Below are positions 44,534 to 52,827 of a stretch of DNA of 64,000 bases, piece by piece. Both the position numbers and the translations under genes were made by a program. The notes below the pieces were generated by a model. That model saw only the letters and a list, made by a program, of their open reading frames with translations. It had not been told where the DNA came from and ran no database searches. The first letter of the stretch is position 1, and each line of letters begins with the position of its first letter. This DNA is from Stenotrophomonas sp. SY1 (GTDB lineage Bacteria > Pseudomonadota > Gammaproteobacteria > Xanthomonadales > Xanthomonadaceae), in assembly GCF_021202945.1 (NCBI RefSeq), contig NZ_JAJOYR010000001.1, positions 2,523,543-2,587,542 of the forward strand, in the 5' to 3' direction.

Positions 44534-45013
44534 ATGACCCGCAAGAACACAATCTGCCTCTGGTACGACGGCACCGCGCTGGACGCAGCAACCTTCTACG
44601 CCGCCACCTTTCCCGACAGCAGGGTGGAAGCCGTGCACCGCGCGCCTGGGGATTATCCGGCCGGCAAACAAGGCGATGTGCTGACCGTTGATTTCACCCT
44701 GATGGGCGTTCCCTGCCTGGGTTTGAACGGTGGCGCGGCGTTCAGACACAGCGAAGCGTTTTCGTTCCAGGTGGCCACCGACGATCAAATCGAAACCGAC
44801 CGTCTGTGGCACGCGATCATCGACAATGGCGGCCAGGAAAGCGCCTGTGGCTGGTGCAAGGACAAGTGGGGCCTGTCCTGGCAGATCACCCCTCGTGCGC
44901 TGACTGCTGCGATCACCGACCCGGACCCGGCAGCGGCCAAACGCGCGTTCGAGGCAATGATGCAGATGACCAAGATCGACATCGCGGTGATCGAGGCGGC
45001 GCGGCGCGGCTGA
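44534..45013 (+). CDS. VOC superfamily protein (PhnB-like)
   Basis: A 159-aa protein of the PhnB / 3-demethylubiquinone methyltransferase-like VOC type: WYDGTALDAATFYAATFPDS, GDVLTVDFTLMGVPCLGLNGG, and CGWCKDKWGLSWQITP near the C-terminus. The name of this Pfam group is historical and does not mean ubiquinone methylation. No function can be assigned. GGGAGA just before the ATG at 44534 is a good ribosome binding site. It precedes the cm-ubiT gene but is separated by the FNR-like promoter region. Confidence 0.88.
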   Translation: MTRKNTICLWYDGTALDAATFYAATFPDSRVEAVHRAPGDYPAGKQGDVLTVDFTLMGVPCLGLNGGAAFRHSEAFSFQVATDDQIETDRLWHAIIDNGGQESACGWCKDKWGLSWQITPRALTAAITDPDPAAAKRAFEAMMQMTKIDIAVIEAARRG

Positions 45014-45146: not shown

Positions 45147-45188
45147 TTGATCTGAGTCAAGTGCATCGCAACGGCCTCTGCCTAGGAT
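45147..45188 (+). promoter_or_regulatory. FNR/ANR-type class II promoter of the cm-ubiT-nadA-nadB operon
   Basis: TTGAT-CTGA-GTCAA (45147-45160) matches the FNR/ANR consensus TTGAT-N4-ATCAA at 9 of 10 positions. A -10 like TAGGAT lies at 45183-45188, so the predicted start near 45195 is about 41.5 nt from the dyad centre, the classic activating position. The 256-nt gap after the VOC gene contains this promoter and the short leader. Confidence 0.75.
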
Positions 45189-45269: not shown

Positions 45270-46112
45270 GTGCACGCCGACCCGCTGAACCAGTGGATGC
45301 TGTCCGGCACCCGTCATGCCATCGACTGGGTCGATGACGGGATGGTGCGTCTGCTTTTCCGGCGCCAGCAGCTGGCCAGCATCGCCGGCCGTATCAAACG
45401 CCATGCCGGCATCCCACAGTCCGATCCCGATCGCGAGTCCGGTGTTCAACGGCGCGCGCGTCATCTCGCGTTACGCCGCGGCTTGTCCACCGACAGCGTC
45501 GCCAGACTGATGGCCTTGCTCATCGAAGAGGCGCATCGCCAGCAGAGCGCGATGAAGCCCGACTCCTCCCACTTCGCAGGCCCCAGCATGCCTTCCTCTC
45601 CCGAGCGTGACCGGCGTTTTCCACTGTGGCGATTGCTGCCCCCTCCGCAACGCTGGCGCCCGCTGGTATCGCGCCTGCCCACACCACTGCAGCAGGCACT
45701 CGCACTACGCCTGCTCGCACCGGCCATTGCTTCATCGCAGGCCATGCAGACATTGCAGCCGATCAGGGGGCGTCGTTTGGGTATCCGCGTCGATGACCTG
45801 GGCCTTGAATGGGTGTTCGAACTGCATGAGCGTGGCCTGCAACTGAGCCGTGCACCGGCCGAGGCCACGGTCAGCGGCAGCTTCACTGACCTGCTGCGGC
45901 TGGCCAGCCGGTTGGAGGACGCGGACACGTTGTTCTTCCAGCGCAAGCTGACATTGACCGGCGATACCGAACTCGGCCTGACCCTGCGCAACCTGCTGGA
46001 CCGGTTGCCATGGGAATCGCTGCCGTTGGGACAACGCATCCTGCTGCAGCGCGGTGCGCGGCTGGCGTGCCGTGCGCGGCAGGCGTATCGGGACGCACAG
46101 GGGGCGGCGTGA
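45270..46112 (+). CDS. Chorismate mutase (AroQ)-UbiT fusion protein
   Basis: A 280-aa protein from a GTG start. Residues 6-95 are a type II chorismate mutase domain. Against E. coli AroQ the active-site residues line up without gaps (offset +4): Arg15, Arg32, Lys43, Asp52, Arg55, Glu56 and Gln92. Residues about 115-275 are an SCP2 domain (PLVSRLPTPLQQALALRLL, then a beta/alpha lipid-binding unit), as in UbiT, the lipid carrier of O2-independent ubiquinone synthesis. UbiU and UbiV genes lie 2.5 kb downstream. E. coli UbiT has no mutase part. Start uncertain: a 22-codon frame (45220-45288) overlaps it. nadA overlaps the stop as GTGA. Confidence 0.88.
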   Translation: MHADPLNQWMLSGTRHAIDWVDDGMVRLLFRRQQLASIAGRIKRHAGIPQSDPDRESGVQRRARHLALRRGLSTDSVARLMALLIEEAHRQQSAMKPDSSHFAGPSMPSSPERDRRFPLWRLLPPPQRWRPLVSRLPTPLQQALALRLLAPAIASSQAMQTLQPIRGRRLGIRVDDLGLEWVFELHERGLQLSRAPAEATVSGSFTDLLRLASRLEDADTLFFQRKLTLTGDTELGLTLRNLLDRLPWESLPLGQRILLQRGARLACRARQAYRDAQGAA

Positions 46113-47128
46113 ACGCGCAGGAGTTCCGCCCCGCATGGTCGCCGGACCTGGAAGAGCGTTACAGCGCACGAATCGCACGCGCAGGCAACGCAGTCCCGTG
46201 CCTGGAATGGCCGCTGCATCTGCCCTGGATAGACGCCATCGAACGCCTCAAGCGTCATCGCAACGCAATCATCATGGCGCACAGCTACCAGTCGCCGGAG
46301 ATCTTCCACGGCGTGGCCGACATCACCGGCGATTCGCTGGCCCTTGCCCAGGCCGCCGCCGATTGCGACGCCGAGGTGATCGTGTTGTGCGGCGTCCACT
46401 TCATGGCTGAAACCGCGAAGATCCTCGCCCCGGACCGCACCGTGCTGATCCCGGACCCTGAAGCAGGCTGTTCGCTTGCCGCATCCATCACCGCCGAGGA
46501 TGTGCGTTACCTGCGTGCGCTCCACCATGGCGCCCCGGTGGTCAGCTATGTCAACACGAGCGCGGCGGTGAAGGCCGAATCCGATGCCTGCTGTACATCG
46601 GCCAATGCGTTGCAGGTGGTCGAAGCGATGGGAGCGGACAAGGTGATCTTCCTGCCTGACCAGTACCTGGGCCAGCATGTCGCATCACGCACCGCTGTGG
46701 AGCTGGTGCTGTGGGATGGCCGCTGCGAAGTCCATGAGCAGTTCACCGCACAGCAGGTCCGGCACACGCGCGAGCAGTTCGATGCGCTCGTCGTGGCCCA
46801 TCCCGAATGCTCGCCGGAGGTGTTGGCCGAAGCAGACTTCGTGGGCTCCACCACGGCAATGGGAAACTGGTTGAAAGAAAAGCAGCCGCCACGTGTTGCG
46901 CTGGTCACCGAGTGCTCGATGGCCGACAACCTGCGCAGCCAGTTCCCGCAGATCGAGATCATCAAACCCTGCAATCTTTGCCCGCACATGAAGCGGATCA
47001 CCCTGCCCAACATCCACGCCTGCCTGGCCGACCTCCGGCATCCGGTGCAGGTTCCCGGACGCGTGGCCGCGCGGGCACGCAATTCGCTGCAACGGATGCT
47101 GGCCATCGGGCGCCGGGATGCGGTGTGA
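46109..47128 (+). CDS. nadA: Quinolinate synthase
   Basis: A 339-aa [4Fe-4S] enzyme that condenses iminoaspartate with dihydroxyacetone phosphate to quinolinate in NAD synthesis. Visible landmarks are IIMAHSYQSPEIFHGVAD, VLCGVHFMAETAKIL, VSYVNTSAAVKAESDACCTSANA (in parts), FLPDQYLG and the C-terminal CNLCPHMKRITL. These contain the three cluster Cys positions. The GTG start overlaps the cm-ubiT stop and the stop overlaps nadB, so the three are translated as a coupled set. Its placement between ubi genes under an FNR-like promoter is unusual. Confidence 0.96.
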   Translation: MNAQEFRPAWSPDLEERYSARIARAGNAVPCLEWPLHLPWIDAIERLKRHRNAIIMAHSYQSPEIFHGVADITGDSLALAQAAADCDAEVIVLCGVHFMAETAKILAPDRTVLIPDPEAGCSLAASITAEDVRYLRALHHGAPVVSYVNTSAAVKAESDACCTSANALQVVEAMGADKVIFLPDQYLGQHVASRTAVELVLWDGRCEVHEQFTAQQVRHTREQFDALVVAHPECSPEVLAEADFVGSTTAMGNWLKEKQPPRVALVTECSMADNLRSQFPQIEIIKPCNLCPHMKRITLPNIHACLADLRHPVQVPGRVAARARNSLQRMLAIGRRDAV

Positions 47129-48621: not shown

Positions 48622-49497
48622 TCAATCCGCAAGCGACGCCTTGCCGGGATTGCCGCTCCAATAGCCATTGCGCGCACCCACGCGCGGCGGCAACTGGGCC
48701 GAGCCCAGCATGTCCCGGAAGCGTGCCACTACGCCTGCCATGTCGGCGTGCTGCGGACTGAGCCGCAGAATGTCCACGCCGCACGCGGCCAGTTCGTCGC
48801 GCTCCGGGGCCATGTCCACCACATCCATCCCCTGCACCTGGATACCGTTGATGACCATGAACGGCTCACCTTCGCGGGTAGCCAGCGGCAGTCCATCAGG
48901 ATGATCAATGCAGCGGAATCCGCATTCGTCCTTGGGCACGTCCAGCGCCCGCGCGGTGAAGCAGCGCGCCGAATAGGCCAGCGGCAAACGTCCCCACGCC
49001 AGCACCTCCAGTTCCGGCATCGGCTGGCCTGCCGTCGCCATGCCGGCGCGGATGTCGTCCAGCAGTTCGCGGCCATGCTCGACGCCGGCTACCCAGCGCT
49101 GCAGGCCGTCTTCGATCAGCAGTTGCAGGGTGCGGTGGTTGTAGATGTTGAGCGTCGGCCCGGCAATGAACGGAAGGCCCCGCTCGCGGCACAACTGGAC
49201 GGCGGATAGATCATTCGCCTCCAGCAGGAAGCGCCCATTGTCGACCAGGCGTTGTATTCCCCCCAGTTCCGATTCGGCCTCGACCAACGCCAGGGACGAC
49301 AGCACGATCTGCTTGCCACTGGCCGCAAGTTCATCAGCCAAGGCCAACCAATCACGGGGACGCAGCTCGCGCCGCTTGCTGCATACCGTTTCGCCCAGAT
49401 ACAGAGTGTCCAGCGGCCAGCGCACCGCCTCCCGATAGAACGACAGCACACGCTCGCGCGGCCAGAAGTACTGCAGCGGTCCAAGACTGAGTTTCAT
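48622..49497 (-). CDS. ubiV: Ubiquinone biosynthesis protein UbiV (O2-independent hydroxylation)
   Basis: A 291-aa U32-family protein. It acts with UbiU in the oxygen-independent hydroxylation steps of ubiquinone synthesis. The four Cys expected to hold its [4Fe-4S] cluster are present: ETVCSKRREL near residue 40, then YSARCF, KDECGF and FRCIDH. I chose the ATG at 49497 (MKLSLGPLQYFWPRE), the usual start, 4 nt after the ubiU stop. It converges on nadB with a 54-nt gap. Confidence 0.95.
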   Translation of the reverse strand: MKLSLGPLQYFWPRERVLSFYREAVRWPLDTLYLGETVCSKRRELRPRDWLALADELAASGKQIVLSSLALVEAESELGGIQRLVDNGRFLLEANDLSAVQLCRERGLPFIAGPTLNIYNHRTLQLLIEDGLQRWVAGVEHGRELLDDIRAGMATAGQPMPELEVLAWGRLPLAYSARCFTARALDVPKDECGFRCIDHPDGLPLATREGEPFMVINGIQVQGMDVVDMAPERDELAACGVDILRLSPQHADMAGVVARFRDMLGSAQLPPRVGARNGYWSGNPGKASLAD

Positions 49498-49501
49498 GGT
49501 G

Positions 49502-50500
49502 TCAATGCCAGGCACGGTGATAAGGCCCCAGAGTGGTCTGCTGCCCTTCGGCGTGGGCTGCCAGCGCGTTGTTCCAGTTTTCGCGAAGGCGCCACTGCTG
49601 GGCGCTGCGTGCGTACTCGTCGATGGCCTGTCGCCACACGCCAGCGACAGTTCGCACATAGGCGACACCGCGCTGACGCCCCTCGACCTTCAGCGCAACC
49701 ACGCCGGCCTGCGCCAGTTGCGGCAGAAGTTCCAGGGTGTTGAGGCTGGTGGGCTCCTCCAGCGCATGGAAGACCTCTTCGCCAACGCGATAACGCCCCT
49801 TGCAGACGGTGGGATACCCCGCAGGTTCATCTGGACTGAACCGATCAATCAGAACGCCGTTCAAACGTACGTTGCGACTGTTGTCTGCCAGCTCCTCCCA
49901 GCGTACGAAGCTGGCAGGGGAACACACGCCGTGCCGATTGGGTGACTTGCCGGTGACATAGCTGGAAAGATGACAACGTCCTTCAACCATGATGCACAGG
50001 CTGCCGAAAGCGAACACCTCCAGCGGCACCGGCGAGGTCTGGCAGAGGCGCTGTACCTGCTGCAGCGACAACACCCGCGGCAATACCGCGCGGGAAATCC
50101 CGAAACGTTCATGTGCGTACCGCAACGCTGCCGCCGTGGTGGCGGAACCCTGTACCGAAAGATGGCGGGCCATGTCGGGATGATGCCTGCACGCATGGTC
50201 CAGCACCGCCATCTCCGCCGCGATGATGGCGTCGGCGCCCAGTTCGGCCGCCTGATCGACCGCACGGAACCACGCGTCCAGCCGTGCGCTGTCCGGATAG
50301 GTATTCAGTGCCAGATAGATCTTGCGACTGCGCGCATGTGCATAGGCAATTCCATCGCGCAGCTCCTGCATGTCAAAGTTCAGGCCAGGAAAGGCGCGCG
50401 CGTTGGTCTGATCTCGGAATCCCACATAGACCGCATCGGCACCGGCGTCGATCGCCGCGTGCAGGGCTGGCAGGTTGCCTGCCGGACATACCAGTTGCAT
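49502..50500 (-). CDS. ubiU: Ubiquinone biosynthesis protein UbiU (O2-independent hydroxylation)
   Basis: A 332-aa U32-family protein and partner of UbiV. The TIM-barrel N-terminus MQLVCPAGNLPALHAAIDAGADAVYVG is typical (landmark: CPAGNLPAL). The cluster Cys appear in FGSLCIMVEGRCHLSS, RHGVCSPASF and TVCKGRYRV. U32 relatives TrhP and RlhA hydroxylate RNA and depend on prephenate. The gene is preceded by ubiD (54-nt gap) and followed by ubiV (4-nt gap), so the three form one leftward operon. Confidence 0.95.
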   Translation of the reverse strand: MQLVCPAGNLPALHAAIDAGADAVYVGFRDQTNARAFPGLNFDMQELRDGIAYAHARSRKIYLALNTYPDSARLDAWFRAVDQAAELGADAIIAAEMAVLDHACRHHPDMARHLSVQGSATTAAALRYAHERFGISRAVLPRVLSLQQVQRLCQTSPVPLEVFAFGSLCIMVEGRCHLSSYVTGKSPNRHGVCSPASFVRWEELADNSRNVRLNGVLIDRFSPDEPAGYPTVCKGRYRVGEEVFHALEEPTSLNTLELLPQLAQAGVVALKVEGRQRGVAYVRTVAGVWRQAIDEYARSAQQWRLRENWNNALAAHAEGQQTTLGPYHRAWH

Positions 50501-50554: not shown

Positions 50555-52045
50555 TCACGGGTCGTCATCCGCTTGCGCATGCGCGCGACTGATCGCCTCC
50601 CAGAGCACATCCACCCGTTGCTCCACCCGCCGATCAAGAGTGATGGGGCGGCCCCACTCGCGACTGCTTTCCCCCGGCCATTTGCGCGTGGCGTCCAGCC
50701 CGAGCTTGGAGCCCAGACCGGGGACGGGCGAAGCGAAATCCAGATAATCGATGGGCGTGTTCTCCACCAGCATGCTGTCGCGCGCCGGATCCACGCGGGT
50801 GGAGATCGCCCAGACCACCTGTGACCAGTCACGCACGTCGATATCCTCATCGGTGACGATGACGAACTTGGTGTACGTGAACTGCCGCAGGTACGACCAG
50901 ATGCCCATCATGATCCGTCGCGCATGGCCGGCGTACTGCTTGCGGATGCTCACCACCGCCACGCGATAGGAGCAGGCTTCCGGCGGCAGGAAGAAATCGA
51001 TGATCTCCGGAAACACCTTGCGCAGAATCGGCACGAATACATCGTTGAGCGCACGCGCCAGCACCGACGGCTCATCGAAGGGTGCGCGCCCCATGTAACT
51101 GCCGTGATAGATCGCACCGGCACGCAGCCGCATGCATTCGATGGTGAGCACAGGGAATTGCCCCTGCCCGTTGTAATAGCCGGTGTGGTCACCAAACGGC
51201 CCTTCCAGTGCGGTATCGCCGGGATGGATGAATCCTTCCAGCACGATCTCCGCACCGGCCGGCACATCCAGCCCGGTCAGTTCGCTTCGCCACACGCGCG
51301 ATCGTGCGCCACGCAGCAGCCCGGCGAACTCGTATTCGGAAAGCGTATCGGGTACTGGCGCCACCGCCGCCAGCAGAGTGGCGGGGTCCGCGCCGATGGC
51401 CACCACGACTGGAAATGGCTTGCCCGGGTGGGCGGCCTGCCAACCGGCGAAATCCAGCGCGCCGCCACGATGGGGCAACCAGCGCATGATCACCCTGTTG
51501 CGGCCGATCACCTGCTGCCGATAGATGGCCACGTTCTGCCTTGCCTGATGCACGCCGCGTGTAACCACCAAACCGAAGGTGATCAGGCGGTCAACATCCT
51601 CCGGCCAGCATCGTTGGATGGGCAAGGCAGCCAGGTCGACCGCTTCCCCTTCGAGCACGTGCGCATTGACCTCGGCCTGATGTACCCGTCGGGGGGCCAC
51701 GTGCAGCAACTGTCCCCATTCCGGCCATTGCGACAATGCATCGCGCAGATTGGCGGGCCAACGCGGCTCCTTGACCGCCGCAAGCAGCTCACCCAGTTCA
51801 CGCAACGATGCCAGTGGCCGGCCATCGAGCGCCATCTCGATCCGCCGCGGATGCCCGAACAGGTTGCCCAGCAGCGGATGTTCCGAACCGGTGTTGTTCA
51901 TCAGCAATGCCGGCCCGCCGGCACGCAACGCGCGCAGGCTCAGCGACGTGCTTTCCAGTTGCGGCGCGACTGCGGCATCCATCCGGCACAAGTCACCGCG
52001 CGCATCCAGGTGCTGCAGGAACTGGCGAAGATCATGAAAGGCCAT
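50555..52045 (-). CDS. ubiD: UbiD-type 4-hydroxy-3-polyprenylbenzoate decarboxylase
   Basis: A 496-aa prenylated-FMN decarboxylase (E. coli UbiD 497). The N-terminus [19 protein letters not shown] and blocks [20 protein letters not shown] and [24 protein letters not shown] (in parts) are characteristic. It removes the carboxyl group of the octaprenyl-hydroxybenzoate ring in ubiquinone synthesis and needs UbiX, not in the window. The ATG at 52045 was chosen over an upstream start at 52126 by family N-terminus. First gene of the leftward ubiD-ubiU-ubiV operon with an FNR-like site upstream. Confidence 0.95.
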
Positions 52046-52190
52046 GATCGCTCCGACACAGGGCAGCGGAGGCGACGGAATGGAGTGCCTGCCGTGTGCC
52101 ACGGCAACGCCGAATCGCGCGCCCATGCCTGCGGATTTCCATCGGCCGGATGGAAGGCTTCATCAACAGCTCCCCTGTCATCGAGCGGCC

Positions 52191-52232
52191 ATTGTGGGGA
52201 GCGGCCACCTGCGGAGTCTTGACTTGCATCAA
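52191..52232 (-). promoter_or_regulatory. FNR/ANR-type promoter of the ubiD-ubiU-ubiV operon
   Basis: Read leftward, TTGAT-GCAA-GTCAA (52232-52219) matches the FNR/ANR consensus at 9 of 10 positions. A -10 like CACAAT lies at 52196-52191, giving a predicted start near 52184 and a centre distance of about 41.5. The leader to ubiD would be about 139 nt. Confidence 0.7.
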
Positions 52233-52338: not shown

Positions 52339-52434
52339 GCGTTGTGGCCGCAGTGCCTTCAGAGGCACACGCGCGCCGGCCACATGCGCCGTCGCAAACG
52401 CGGCCACGCACCGTCTCCGCTGAGGGTCATCACC

Positions 52435-52827
52435 ATGAAACCATCAAAGCCGCTGGTGTACTCGTGTTCGGGCTGCTCCAGTGCGGCGCAGATGGCCAAT
52501 CAGATGGCGCTGTGGCTGGACCGGCAAGGCGTGGCGGAGATGTCATGCATCGCAGGCGTGGGCGGCAACGTGCATGCACTGGTGCGTACGGCCACCTCCG
52601 GCCGGCCAATCATTGCGCTGGACGGCTGCATCCTGCATTGCGTGAAGGCATGCCTGGCGAAGGTAAACACCGAAGCAACCCTGCATGTCACGCTTTCCAA
52701 TCATGGCGTCAGGAAGCGCAGGCATGCTGATTTCGACGCGCAACAGGCCGAAGAGGTATACAGGCACCACGTGCTGCCGCAGATTCAGGCCTTGGCGCGG
52801 AACGGGATGGCCGAGCCCGATGGCTGA
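52435..52827 (+). CDS. DGC-domain putative zinc-binding protein
   Basis: A 130-aa protein with YSCSGCSSAAQMANQMA at the N-terminus, MSCIAGVGGN in the middle, and ALDGCILHCVKACL carrying the Asp-Gly-Cys triplet that names the DGC domain. Its Cys pairs suggest zinc or an Fe-S cluster, but no biochemical function is known to me. Proteins of this family often accompany anaerobic respiration genes, consistent with its FNR-like promoter and the ubi neighbours. The ATG at 52435 begins the family N-terminus. Confidence 0.88.
   Translation: MKPSKPLVYSCSGCSSAAQMANQMALWLDRQGVAEMSCIAGVGGNVHALVRTATSGRPIIALDGCILHCVKACLAKVNTEATLHVTLSNHGVRKRRHADFDAQQAEEVYRHHVLPQIQALARNGMAEPDG

What the first reader, a model, noticed from the sequence alone, without database searches (positions are those of the whole stretch)
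45270..46112. Chorismate mutase fused to UbiT in an O2-independent ubiquinone locus
Seen: residues 6-95 align with E. coli AroQ without gaps, and all seven active-site residues (Arg11, Arg28, Lys39, Asp48, Arg51, Glu52, Gln88 in E. coli numbering) are conserved at offset +4. The rest is a UbiT-type SCP2 domain. Known: chorismate mutase makes prephenate, and the U32-family hydroxylases TrhP and RlhA, relatives of UbiU/UbiV, depend on prephenate in vivo. Inference: the fused mutase makes prephenate next to the lipid-bound ubiquinone precursor, as the hydroxyl donor for UbiU-UbiV. I do not know of a description of this fusion.
Basis: partly seen in the sequence, partly recalled or inferred. Interest (0 to 1): 0.93.

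Follow-up and report, generated by a model that had tools for sequence, protein, structure and literature searches.

The report
Mutase fused to anaerobic ubiquinone carrier
One gene here encodes a chorismate mutase-type domain joined to the lipid carrier UbiT, in the gene cluster for oxygen-free ubiquinone synthesis; the mutase likely makes prephenate, the reported oxygen donor of that pathway, where it is needed, and other bacteria keep chorismate mutase-family genes right beside ubiT.

Summary
Window 45270-46112 is one open frame with a type II (AroQ) chorismate mutase domain (Pfam E 3e-12) and a UbiT domain (NCBIfam 117.8 bits, cut-off 46.9), near ubiD-ubiU-ubiV; the seven E. coli active-site residues are present at offset +4. 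In 299 genomes of the order, 41 carry the full fusion and all 41 have UbiU; none of 219 genomes without a UbiU match has it. In Pseudoxanthomonas sangjuensis the gene is split: the mutase part, all seven residues kept, lies beside ubiV, and ubiT lacks it. In three other orders, chorismate mutase-family genes of a mostly separate lineage lie beside ubiT. Prephenate as oxygen donor is already reported (PNAS 2024, seen here only through a review), so the chemistry is known; the fusion and neighbour genes as a dedicated prephenate supply were not found described in the library searched. Catalysis and local delivery are untested. Against: one genome keeps ubiTUV without the domain, 72 of 77 unfused ubiT loci had no linked mutase in the flanks held, and 16 of 17 stand-alone neighbours lack Gln88. 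New variant of a known kind.

The parts
45147..45160 (.). FNR/ANR-like box TTGATCTGAGTCAA (one mismatch to TTGAT-N4-ATCAA, consensus recalled), about 110 bases ahead of the GTG
   Evidence: 15 of 77 upstream regions of related fusions hold such a box (<=1 mismatch) against 69 of 2413 control stretches; four other such boxes in the 64 kb, so weak alone
45270..46112 (+). CM-UbiT fusion gene, 280 aa
   Evidence: open frame; both Pfam domains over cut-off; AlphaFold2 mean pLDDT 90.1, pTM 0.65
45312..45545 (+). type II (AroQ) chorismate mutase domain, residues 15-92, all seven cited active-site residues
   Evidence: Foldseek to E. coli chorismate mutase 1ecm_A rmsd 0.8 over 82 columns, 30% identity, E 0.015
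45555..45620 (+). low-confidence linker, about residues 96-117
   Evidence: pLDDT falls to about 50-74 there; length varies among relatives
45621..46109 (+). UbiT part with SCP2 domain (Pfam residues 155-244)
   Evidence: best fold match UbiJ SCP2 6h6o_A, E 1.3e-5
46109..47128 (+). nadA, quinolinate synthase; the GTG chosen as its start overlaps the fusion's stop (GTGA)
   Evidence: nadA follows directly in 53 of 80 related loci
48622..49497 (-). ubiV (start placed at the Met where the family model begins); Cys39, 179, 192, 196 align with E. coli UbiV Cys39, 180, 193, 197
   Evidence: NCBIfam UbiV 346 bits over 275
49502..50500 (-). ubiU; Cys169, 176, 193, 233 align with E. coli UbiU Cys169, 176, 193, 232
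   Evidence: NCBIfam UbiU 528.6 bits over 440
50555..52126 (-). ubiD-family decarboxylase, upstream of ubiU on the same strand
   Evidence: Pfam UbiD domains; NCBIfam TIGR00148 over cut-off, PRK10922 707.6 bits under its 788
52219..52232 (.). FNR/ANR-like box TTGACTTGCATCAA (one mismatch) ahead of ubiD-ubiU-ubiV
   Evidence: position only, no test of function

Best explanation
The 280-residue product of window 45270-46112 is a chorismate mutase-type (AroQ) domain fused to UbiT, and it is predicted to turn chorismate into prephenate beside UbiU-UbiV, which likely use that prephenate as the oxygen donor to hydroxylate ubiquinone precursors without O2. Shown: both domains, the full set of seven active-site residues, the ubiD-ubiU-ubiV neighbours with their Fe-S cysteine positions, co-occurrence with UbiU, and conservation of the arrangement. 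Inferred: catalysis; that UbiT holds the lipid precursor (as proposed for UbiJ and UbiT in print); that the fusion makes a local prephenate pool independent of PheA, whose prephenate is consumed by its own dehydratase and is expected to be controlled by phenylalanine (recalled). UbiU-UbiV are thought to carry out all three ring hydroxylations (recalled), so a dedicated supply would help when anaerobic respiration starts while amino acids are plentiful.
For: (1) Active site: in 78 related loci plus the window, R11, R28, K39, R51 and E52 (E. coli numbers) are in 79 of 79, Q88 in 78 (one His) and D48 in 74 (five Asn); the 120 listed proteins (of 1571 matched; loci and proteins overlap) have all seven. 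Five of the seven fully invariant positions among 85 are active-site residues, p 1e-5 by hypergeometric, relatedness ignored, although the mutase domain evolves faster than the UbiT part. In the 25 closest DNA pairs its dN/dS is 0 to 0.27. (2) Co-occurrence: 41 of 299 genomes of the order carry the full fusion, all 41 have a UbiU match (E <= 1e-60; partial in two), and 0 of the 219 genomes without one have the fusion. (3) Split: P. sangjuensis has UbiT without the domain beside nadA, and a separate mutase ORF with all seven residues right behind ubiV, ending by eye in a UbiT remnant. G291 has a separate intact mutase ORF and an unfused ubiT. G012, with no UbiU match, has such an ORF with Lys39 changed to Arg. 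(4) Recurrence: mutase-family genes lie beside or fused to ubiT in 12 of the 12 genomes with a hit (19 searched) in one order, 6 of 6 with a hit (9 searched; two are fused frames) in a second, and the 1 of 2 with a hit in a third; the profile was built from five of these, three in the first order and one in each other. On the tree, 15 of 17 such rows form one group (99/95), apart from the window's fusion family (94/99). (5) Prephenate as donor in print.
Against: No assay. G255 has UbiU, UbiV and UbiT with the mutase part deleted, and the only mutase hit in its genome (E <= 0.001) is a PheA-type frame, so the domain can be lost. 72 of 77 unfused ubiT loci in the class sample show no mutase gene in the flanks held, some cut by contig ends, and 36 UbiU-positive genomes of other families in the order have no full fusion. 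So the chemistry does not need a linked mutase. 16 of 17 ubiT-adjacent stand-alone proteins lack Gln88 and 16 of 17 lack Asp48, so they may not be full mutases, though E. coli TyrA also lacks both (Glu, Val). Ser84 is Ala in 73 of 79 fusions. The PheA-type protein of the same genome could supply prephenate. The FNR-like box is found in only 15 of 77 related upstream regions, exact in 2 of 77 against 11 of 2413 controls.
Confidence: 0.72

Rival explanations
1. The fused domain is an ordinary second chorismate mutase that feeds phenylalanine and tyrosine synthesis; the fusion is a historical accident without a role in ubiquinone synthesis.
For: It has the full mutase residue set, and mutases fused to other enzymes are known (PheA, TyrA).
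Against: A PheA-type frame with its own mutase is present. The full fusion is in 0 of 219 genomes of the order without a UbiU match, and the mutase stays by ubiUV after the split in P. sangjuensis. A second lineage became linked to ubiT.
Confidence: 0.1
2. The AroQ-type domain is mainly a ligand-binding or dimerising module: it binds chorismate or prephenate, or pairs UbiT subunits, and catalysis is secondary or absent.
For: AroQ domains are intertwined dimers (recalled). In the ubiT-adjacent stand-alone proteins five pocket residues are in 17 of 17 but Gln88 is in 1 of 17, which fits binding without full catalysis.
Against: In the fusions of the window's family group Gln88 is kept in 78 of 79 and Lys39 in 79 of 79, more than binding or dimerisation would need.
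Confidence: 0.12
3. The mutase supplies prephenate to other users: the U32 hydroxylases of RNA (TrhP, RlhA) or CmoA.
For: TrhP and RlhA depend on prephenate, and CmoA uses it, in E. coli (PMC6599085, passages).
Against: The gene tracks UbiU and lies in the ubiquinone locus; whether it also tracks trhP, rlhA or cmoA was not tested.
Confidence: 0.04
4. The AroQ-fold domain is a lyase that makes 4-hydroxybenzoate (chorismate lyase-like) or acts on isochorismate, feeding the start of ubiquinone synthesis.
For: AroQ-fold isochorismate-pyruvate lyase exists (recalled); the domain matches the NCBIfam isochorismate lyase model weakly (20.6 bits, cut-off 126).
Against: It matches mutase models better (41 bits, also under their cut-offs) and has the mutase set including E52 and Q88. 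The genome has a chorismatase-family match that could make 4-hydroxybenzoate (209 bits, under the cut-off of 325).
Confidence: 0.02

Closest known systems
UbiT (YhbT) of the O2-independent ubiquinone pathway, E. coli
   Same: SCP2 lipid-binding domain, NCBIfam UbiT equivalog, locus with ubiU and ubiV
   Different: E. coli ubiT is 525 bases, SCP2 making up its major part (PMC6747719, passage): no N-terminal mutase domain
PheA and TyrA of E. coli (mutase fused to prephenate dehydratase or dehydrogenase)
   Same: AroQ-type mutase at the N-terminus of a fused protein; pocket residues
   Different: the partner here is a lipid carrier, not an enzyme that consumes prephenate for amino acids
ubiT-ubiU fusion of Zymomonas mobilis (PMC6747719, passages)
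   Same: a fusion that links UbiT to its pathway partner
   Different: joins UbiT to the hydroxylase, not to a source of the donor
Prephenate-dependent hydroxylation by U32 proteins (UbiU-UbiV, TrhP, RlhA; PMC11574389, PMC6599085, passages)
   Same: the same presumed use of prephenate
   Different: no dedicated mutase in the passages read; in E. coli PheA and TyrA make prephenate

Membership tests
UbiT | passes the curated UbiT model | tested here: met
   NF047962 117.8 bits, cut-off 46.9
UbiT | genomic company of ubiU and ubiV | tested here: met
   UbiV and UbiU equivalogs over cut-off, beginning about 2.5 and 3.4 kb away on the opposite strand
UbiT | binds ubiquinone precursors, needed for anaerobic ubiquinone | not testable with these tools
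   -
AroQ-class chorismate mutase | Pfam CM_2 over the gathering score | tested here: met
   46.9 bits, cut-off 27
AroQ-class chorismate mutase | R11, R28, K39, D48, R51, E52, Q88 (E. coli numbers) | tested here: met
   all at +4; Ser84 is Ala
AroQ-class chorismate mutase | three-helix AroQ fold | tested here: met
   model pLDDT 86-97 by blocks over residues 1-90; 1ecm_A rmsd 0.8 over 82 columns, E 0.015; monomer only, dimer not modelled
AroQ-class chorismate mutase | a named NCBIfam mutase equivalog | tested here: not met
   best 41 bits against cut-offs of 120 and 77: outside the named subclasses
AroQ-class chorismate mutase | turns chorismate into prephenate | not testable with these tools
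   -
O2-independent ubiquinone locus (ubiTUV) | UbiU and UbiV with four Fe-S cysteines each | tested here: met
   all eight positions align with E. coli cysteines; which cysteines are ligands is recalled
O2-independent ubiquinone locus (ubiTUV) | FNR-type control | tested here: inconclusive
   boxes with one mismatch at 45147 and 52219; three more elsewhere in the 64 kb

The most novel reading that the evidence does not exclude
Anaerobic ubiquinone synthesis has a previously unrecognised prephenate-supply subunit: an AroQ-type protein that joined UbiT at least twice independently (as a fusion in Xanthomonadales/Lysobacterales and as a neighbour gene in three other orders), channels prephenate straight into UbiU-UbiV within one complex, and in the stand-alone lineage, having lost Gln88, has turned from a mutase into a prephenate-binding delivery factor.
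Probability: 0.27. Interest if true: 0.92.

Novelty: new variant of a known kind. Interest (0 to 1): 0.82.

Why it matters
[quoted passage not shown] A natural protein that ties a prephenate-making type of domain to the presumed carrier of the hydroxylation substrate gives independent, evolutionary support for prephenate as the donor, and a ready-made reagent for rebuilding the reaction in vitro. The P. sangjuensis split and the G255 loss give natural comparisons of fused, separate and absent mutase. The ubiT-adjacent AroQ-type genes are new candidate members of the anaerobic ubiquinone machinery.

Tried and rejected
Frameshift or assembly artefact: rejected, 78 of 80 loci from other genomes show one frame. 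Recent copy of PheA: not supported; the mutase of the same genome's PheA-type frame scores 25 bits against the fusion's mutase profile, the window's own domain (itself a row of that profile) 111, and the tree separates them. Fusion present everywhere: rejected; the full fusion is in 2 of 321 class genomes and 3 of 349 phylum genomes, all in the window's family (the samples overlap). The first-look filter scored only 7-8 candidates per genome, and long match lists were cut, so PheA was often missed; but the 41 full fusions score at E 1.4e-84 or better and head the list. Long UbiT frames in the class sample: no mutase hit in them; seven were printed and read. Median dN/dS over all 2288 selected pairs (0.43 mutase, 0.32 UbiT) is saturated and not used. 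L243 (G967) is identical to the fused frame of L082 and sits in a genome placed outside the window's order: transfer or mis-binning, so I do not take it as an independent fusion. L244 (G971) is a distant fused frame in a 65%-complete genome with a long branch: candidate only. A protein search with one stand-alone neighbour gave 3 relatives and no names. A first count of nadA neighbours used wrong columns and was redone. In one search the row 'G000_PheA' used the wrong frame; the right one is. The tree and held 16 of the 17 stand-alone neighbours found (L232 left out); one search tallied all 17.

Full report
OBSERVATION. The frame at 45270-46112 (+) is open and carries Pfam CM_2 (residues 15-92) and SCP2 (155-244), both over their cut-offs. 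NCBIfam names it UbiT (117.8 bits, cut-off 46.9), and no named chorismate-mutase equivalog passes. AlphaFold2 gives mean pLDDT 90.1 with a three-helix N-terminal domain, a loose linker around residues 95-115 and an SCP2-like part. Foldseek finds UbiJ SCP2 (E 1.3e-5) and E. coli chorismate mutase 1ecm_A (rmsd 0.8 over 82 columns; E 0.015).

SURROUNDINGS. Downstream, nadA, read from its likely GTG, overlaps the fusion's stop codon by four bases. On the other strand lie ubiV (346 bits, cut-off 275), ubiU (528.6, cut-off 440) and a ubiD-family gene. All four Fe-S cysteine positions of each U32 protein align with E. coli. FNR-like boxes with one mismatch precede the fusion (45147) and ubiD (52219). 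Related fusions have such a box in 15 of 77 upstream regions against 69 of 2413 control stretches (odds ratio 8.2, p 1.6e-8). The own genome has one other mutase hit, a PheA-type frame of 407 codons, and one other SCP2 hit.

HOW FAR THE FUSION REACHES. A protein search matched 1571 proteins; the 120 listed carry both Pfam domains. A scan of named genomes kept 80 of 353 related loci: Pseudoxanthomonas, Stenotrophomonas, Lysobacter, Luteimonas, Thermomonas, Arenimonas, Dyella, Rhodanobacter, Frateuria, Dokdonella and others, two records named Xanthomonas, and MAGs, one of them labelled Erythrobacter. Two of these genera were looked up and lie in the order Lysobacterales, families Lysobacteraceae and Rhodanobacteraceae (Xanthomonadales in older use, recalled). 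78 of the 80 have both domains in one frame; UbiU or UbiV lies inside 60 of the 80 loci, and many of the rest are cut by contig or flank ends. In 299 genomes of the window's order, 41 have the full fusion and 80 have a UbiU match. All 41 fusions are in UbiU genomes and none in the 219 others. The fusion is confined to four of the sampled families, where 41 of 44 UbiU genomes have it; 36 UbiU genomes of other families in the order do not. The class sample (321 genomes) and the phylum sample (349; overlapping) show full fusions in the window's family only, 2 and 3 genomes.

THE THREE EXCEPTIONS OF 44. G291 keeps a separate mutase frame with all seven residues 35 kb from an unfused ubiT next to ubiUV. 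G255 has UbiU, UbiV and UbiT, but the mutase part is gone and the frame runs into other sequence; the only mutase hit in the genome is a weak PheA-type one. That counts against strict need. In G033 no UbiT was found in the genome search or next to ubiUV in the 5 kb held. Two genomes without a UbiU match show decay: G184 has a UbiT frame without the domain and G012 a lone mutase frame with Lys39 changed to Arg.

A NATURAL SPLIT. In Pseudoxanthomonas sangjuensis (L073, L110) ubiT without a mutase domain lies beside nadA, and 8 kb away a separate mutase frame lies right behind ubiV, convergent to it. It keeps all seven residues, and its C-terminal end resembles the end of UbiT by eye. The simplest reading (inference) is duplication of the fused gene followed by complementary loss: both functions kept, the covalent link not needed.

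A SECOND LINKAGE. I fetched all 77 unfused ubiT loci of the class sample (63 of 77 show UbiU or UbiV in the flanks held). Five of the 77 hold a mutase-type gene (E <= 1e-3), each directly beside ubiT, and no other mutase hit occurs in the 809 kb. All five pass Pfam CM_2. A profile of these five, three of them from the order of G341 and one each from two others, was then searched. In the order of G341 it hits 12 of 19 genomes, and in all 12 the gene lies next to ubiT. In the order of G534, 6 of 9 genomes have hits: four neighbours and two fused frames, one of them of doubtful origin. In the order of G449, 1 of 2. On a tree of 53 mutase domains, the window's fusion family with its split forms is one group (94/99), 15 of 17 ubiT-linked rows from other orders are another (99/95), and two (L233, L244) fall elsewhere (16 of the 17 stand-alone neighbours plus L244). 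So the linkage arose at least twice if these branches hold; an 80-residue domain with three long branches gives limited certainty. The 17 stand-alone neighbours keep R11, R28, K39, R51 and E52 in 17 of 17, but Asp48 in 1 and Gln88 in 1. They may be weakened mutases or binding proteins; E. coli TyrA, a mutase, also lacks both.

MECHANISM. Print: U32 hydroxylases of RNA need prephenate in E. coli (PMC6599085, passages). A 2024 review says that the hydroxyl group of anaerobic ubiquinone derives from prephenate, citing Kazemzadeh Ferizhendi et al. 2024, and that the exact chemistry is unproven (PMC11574389, passages). UbiT is thought to hold the lipid intermediates (PMC10470549, PMC6747719, passages). 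Together with the above, the best reading is a dedicated prephenate source tied to the carrier of the hydroxylation substrate. Catalysis, delivery and need are inferred.

NOVELTY. Searches of the held library found no paper with 'chorismate mutase' and 'UbiT'. The one paper with 'chorismate mutase' and 'SCP2' is on mandelic acid production (listing). Among papers with at least two of 'chorismate mutase', UbiU, UbiUV, YhbT and YhbU, only the tRNA study has the first, and there the mutase is PheA. One paper holds both 'aroQ' and 'UbiT', a Pseudomonas transcriptome in which they stand in separate tables and no mutase or fusion is named in the passages found. One search found none. The ISME J 2024 survey of ubiTUV does not contain 'mutase', 'fusion' or 'fused' in its main text, nor does the 2026 mSystems survey contain 'chorismate', 'fusion' or 'fused'. 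The PNAS 2024 paper is not held and may mention the fusion. Some sources already label members by both domains. I therefore call it a new variant of a known kind.

Noticed in passing
L233 (G953) 935-1797: A mutase-type ORF lies between ubiT and ubiV, has Gln88, and groups with E. coli TyrA on the tree: perhaps a third separate recruitment beside ubiT.
   Followed up: partly
L244 889-1773 (G971): A second, distant CM-UbiT fused frame (295 aa, 34% identical to the window's, Val at Gln88) in another order, in a 65%-complete genome; both Pfam domains over cut-off.
   Followed up: partly
L243 (G967) and L082: Identical fused frame in a genome placed in the order of G534, whose genus-mate G966 has a stand-alone mutase beside ubiT: transfer of the locus, or mis-binning.
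   Followed up: no
L040 and L043 (CP007444, Dyella jiangningensis): Two copies of the fusion locus in one chromosome record, with the same match identities and distances: large duplication or assembly redundancy.
   Followed up: no
L110 12479-12859; window about 52342-52827: A DGC-domain gene (PF08859) lies beside the split mutase in P. sangjuensis; a similar frame (by eye) lies upstream of ubiD in the window.
   Followed up: partly
window 46109 and 53 of 80 related loci: nadA follows the fusion directly, with overlapping stop and start here; why an NAD gene is coupled to ubiT is unexplained.
   Followed up: partly
L090, L091, L092 (family f8): In another family of the order the gene order is ubiU-ubiV-ubiD-ubiT on one strand, with no mutase gene in the stretch held.
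   Followed up: no
PheA-type frames of the own genome and five relatives: The mutase domain of PheA in these six genomes has Arg in place of Asp48, a variant pocket.
   Followed up: no
window 44534-45013: PF06983 protein ('3-demethylubiquinone-9 3-methyltransferase' family, 157.5 bits) next to the ubiquinone locus; the Pfam name alone does not tie it to the pathway.
   Followed up: no
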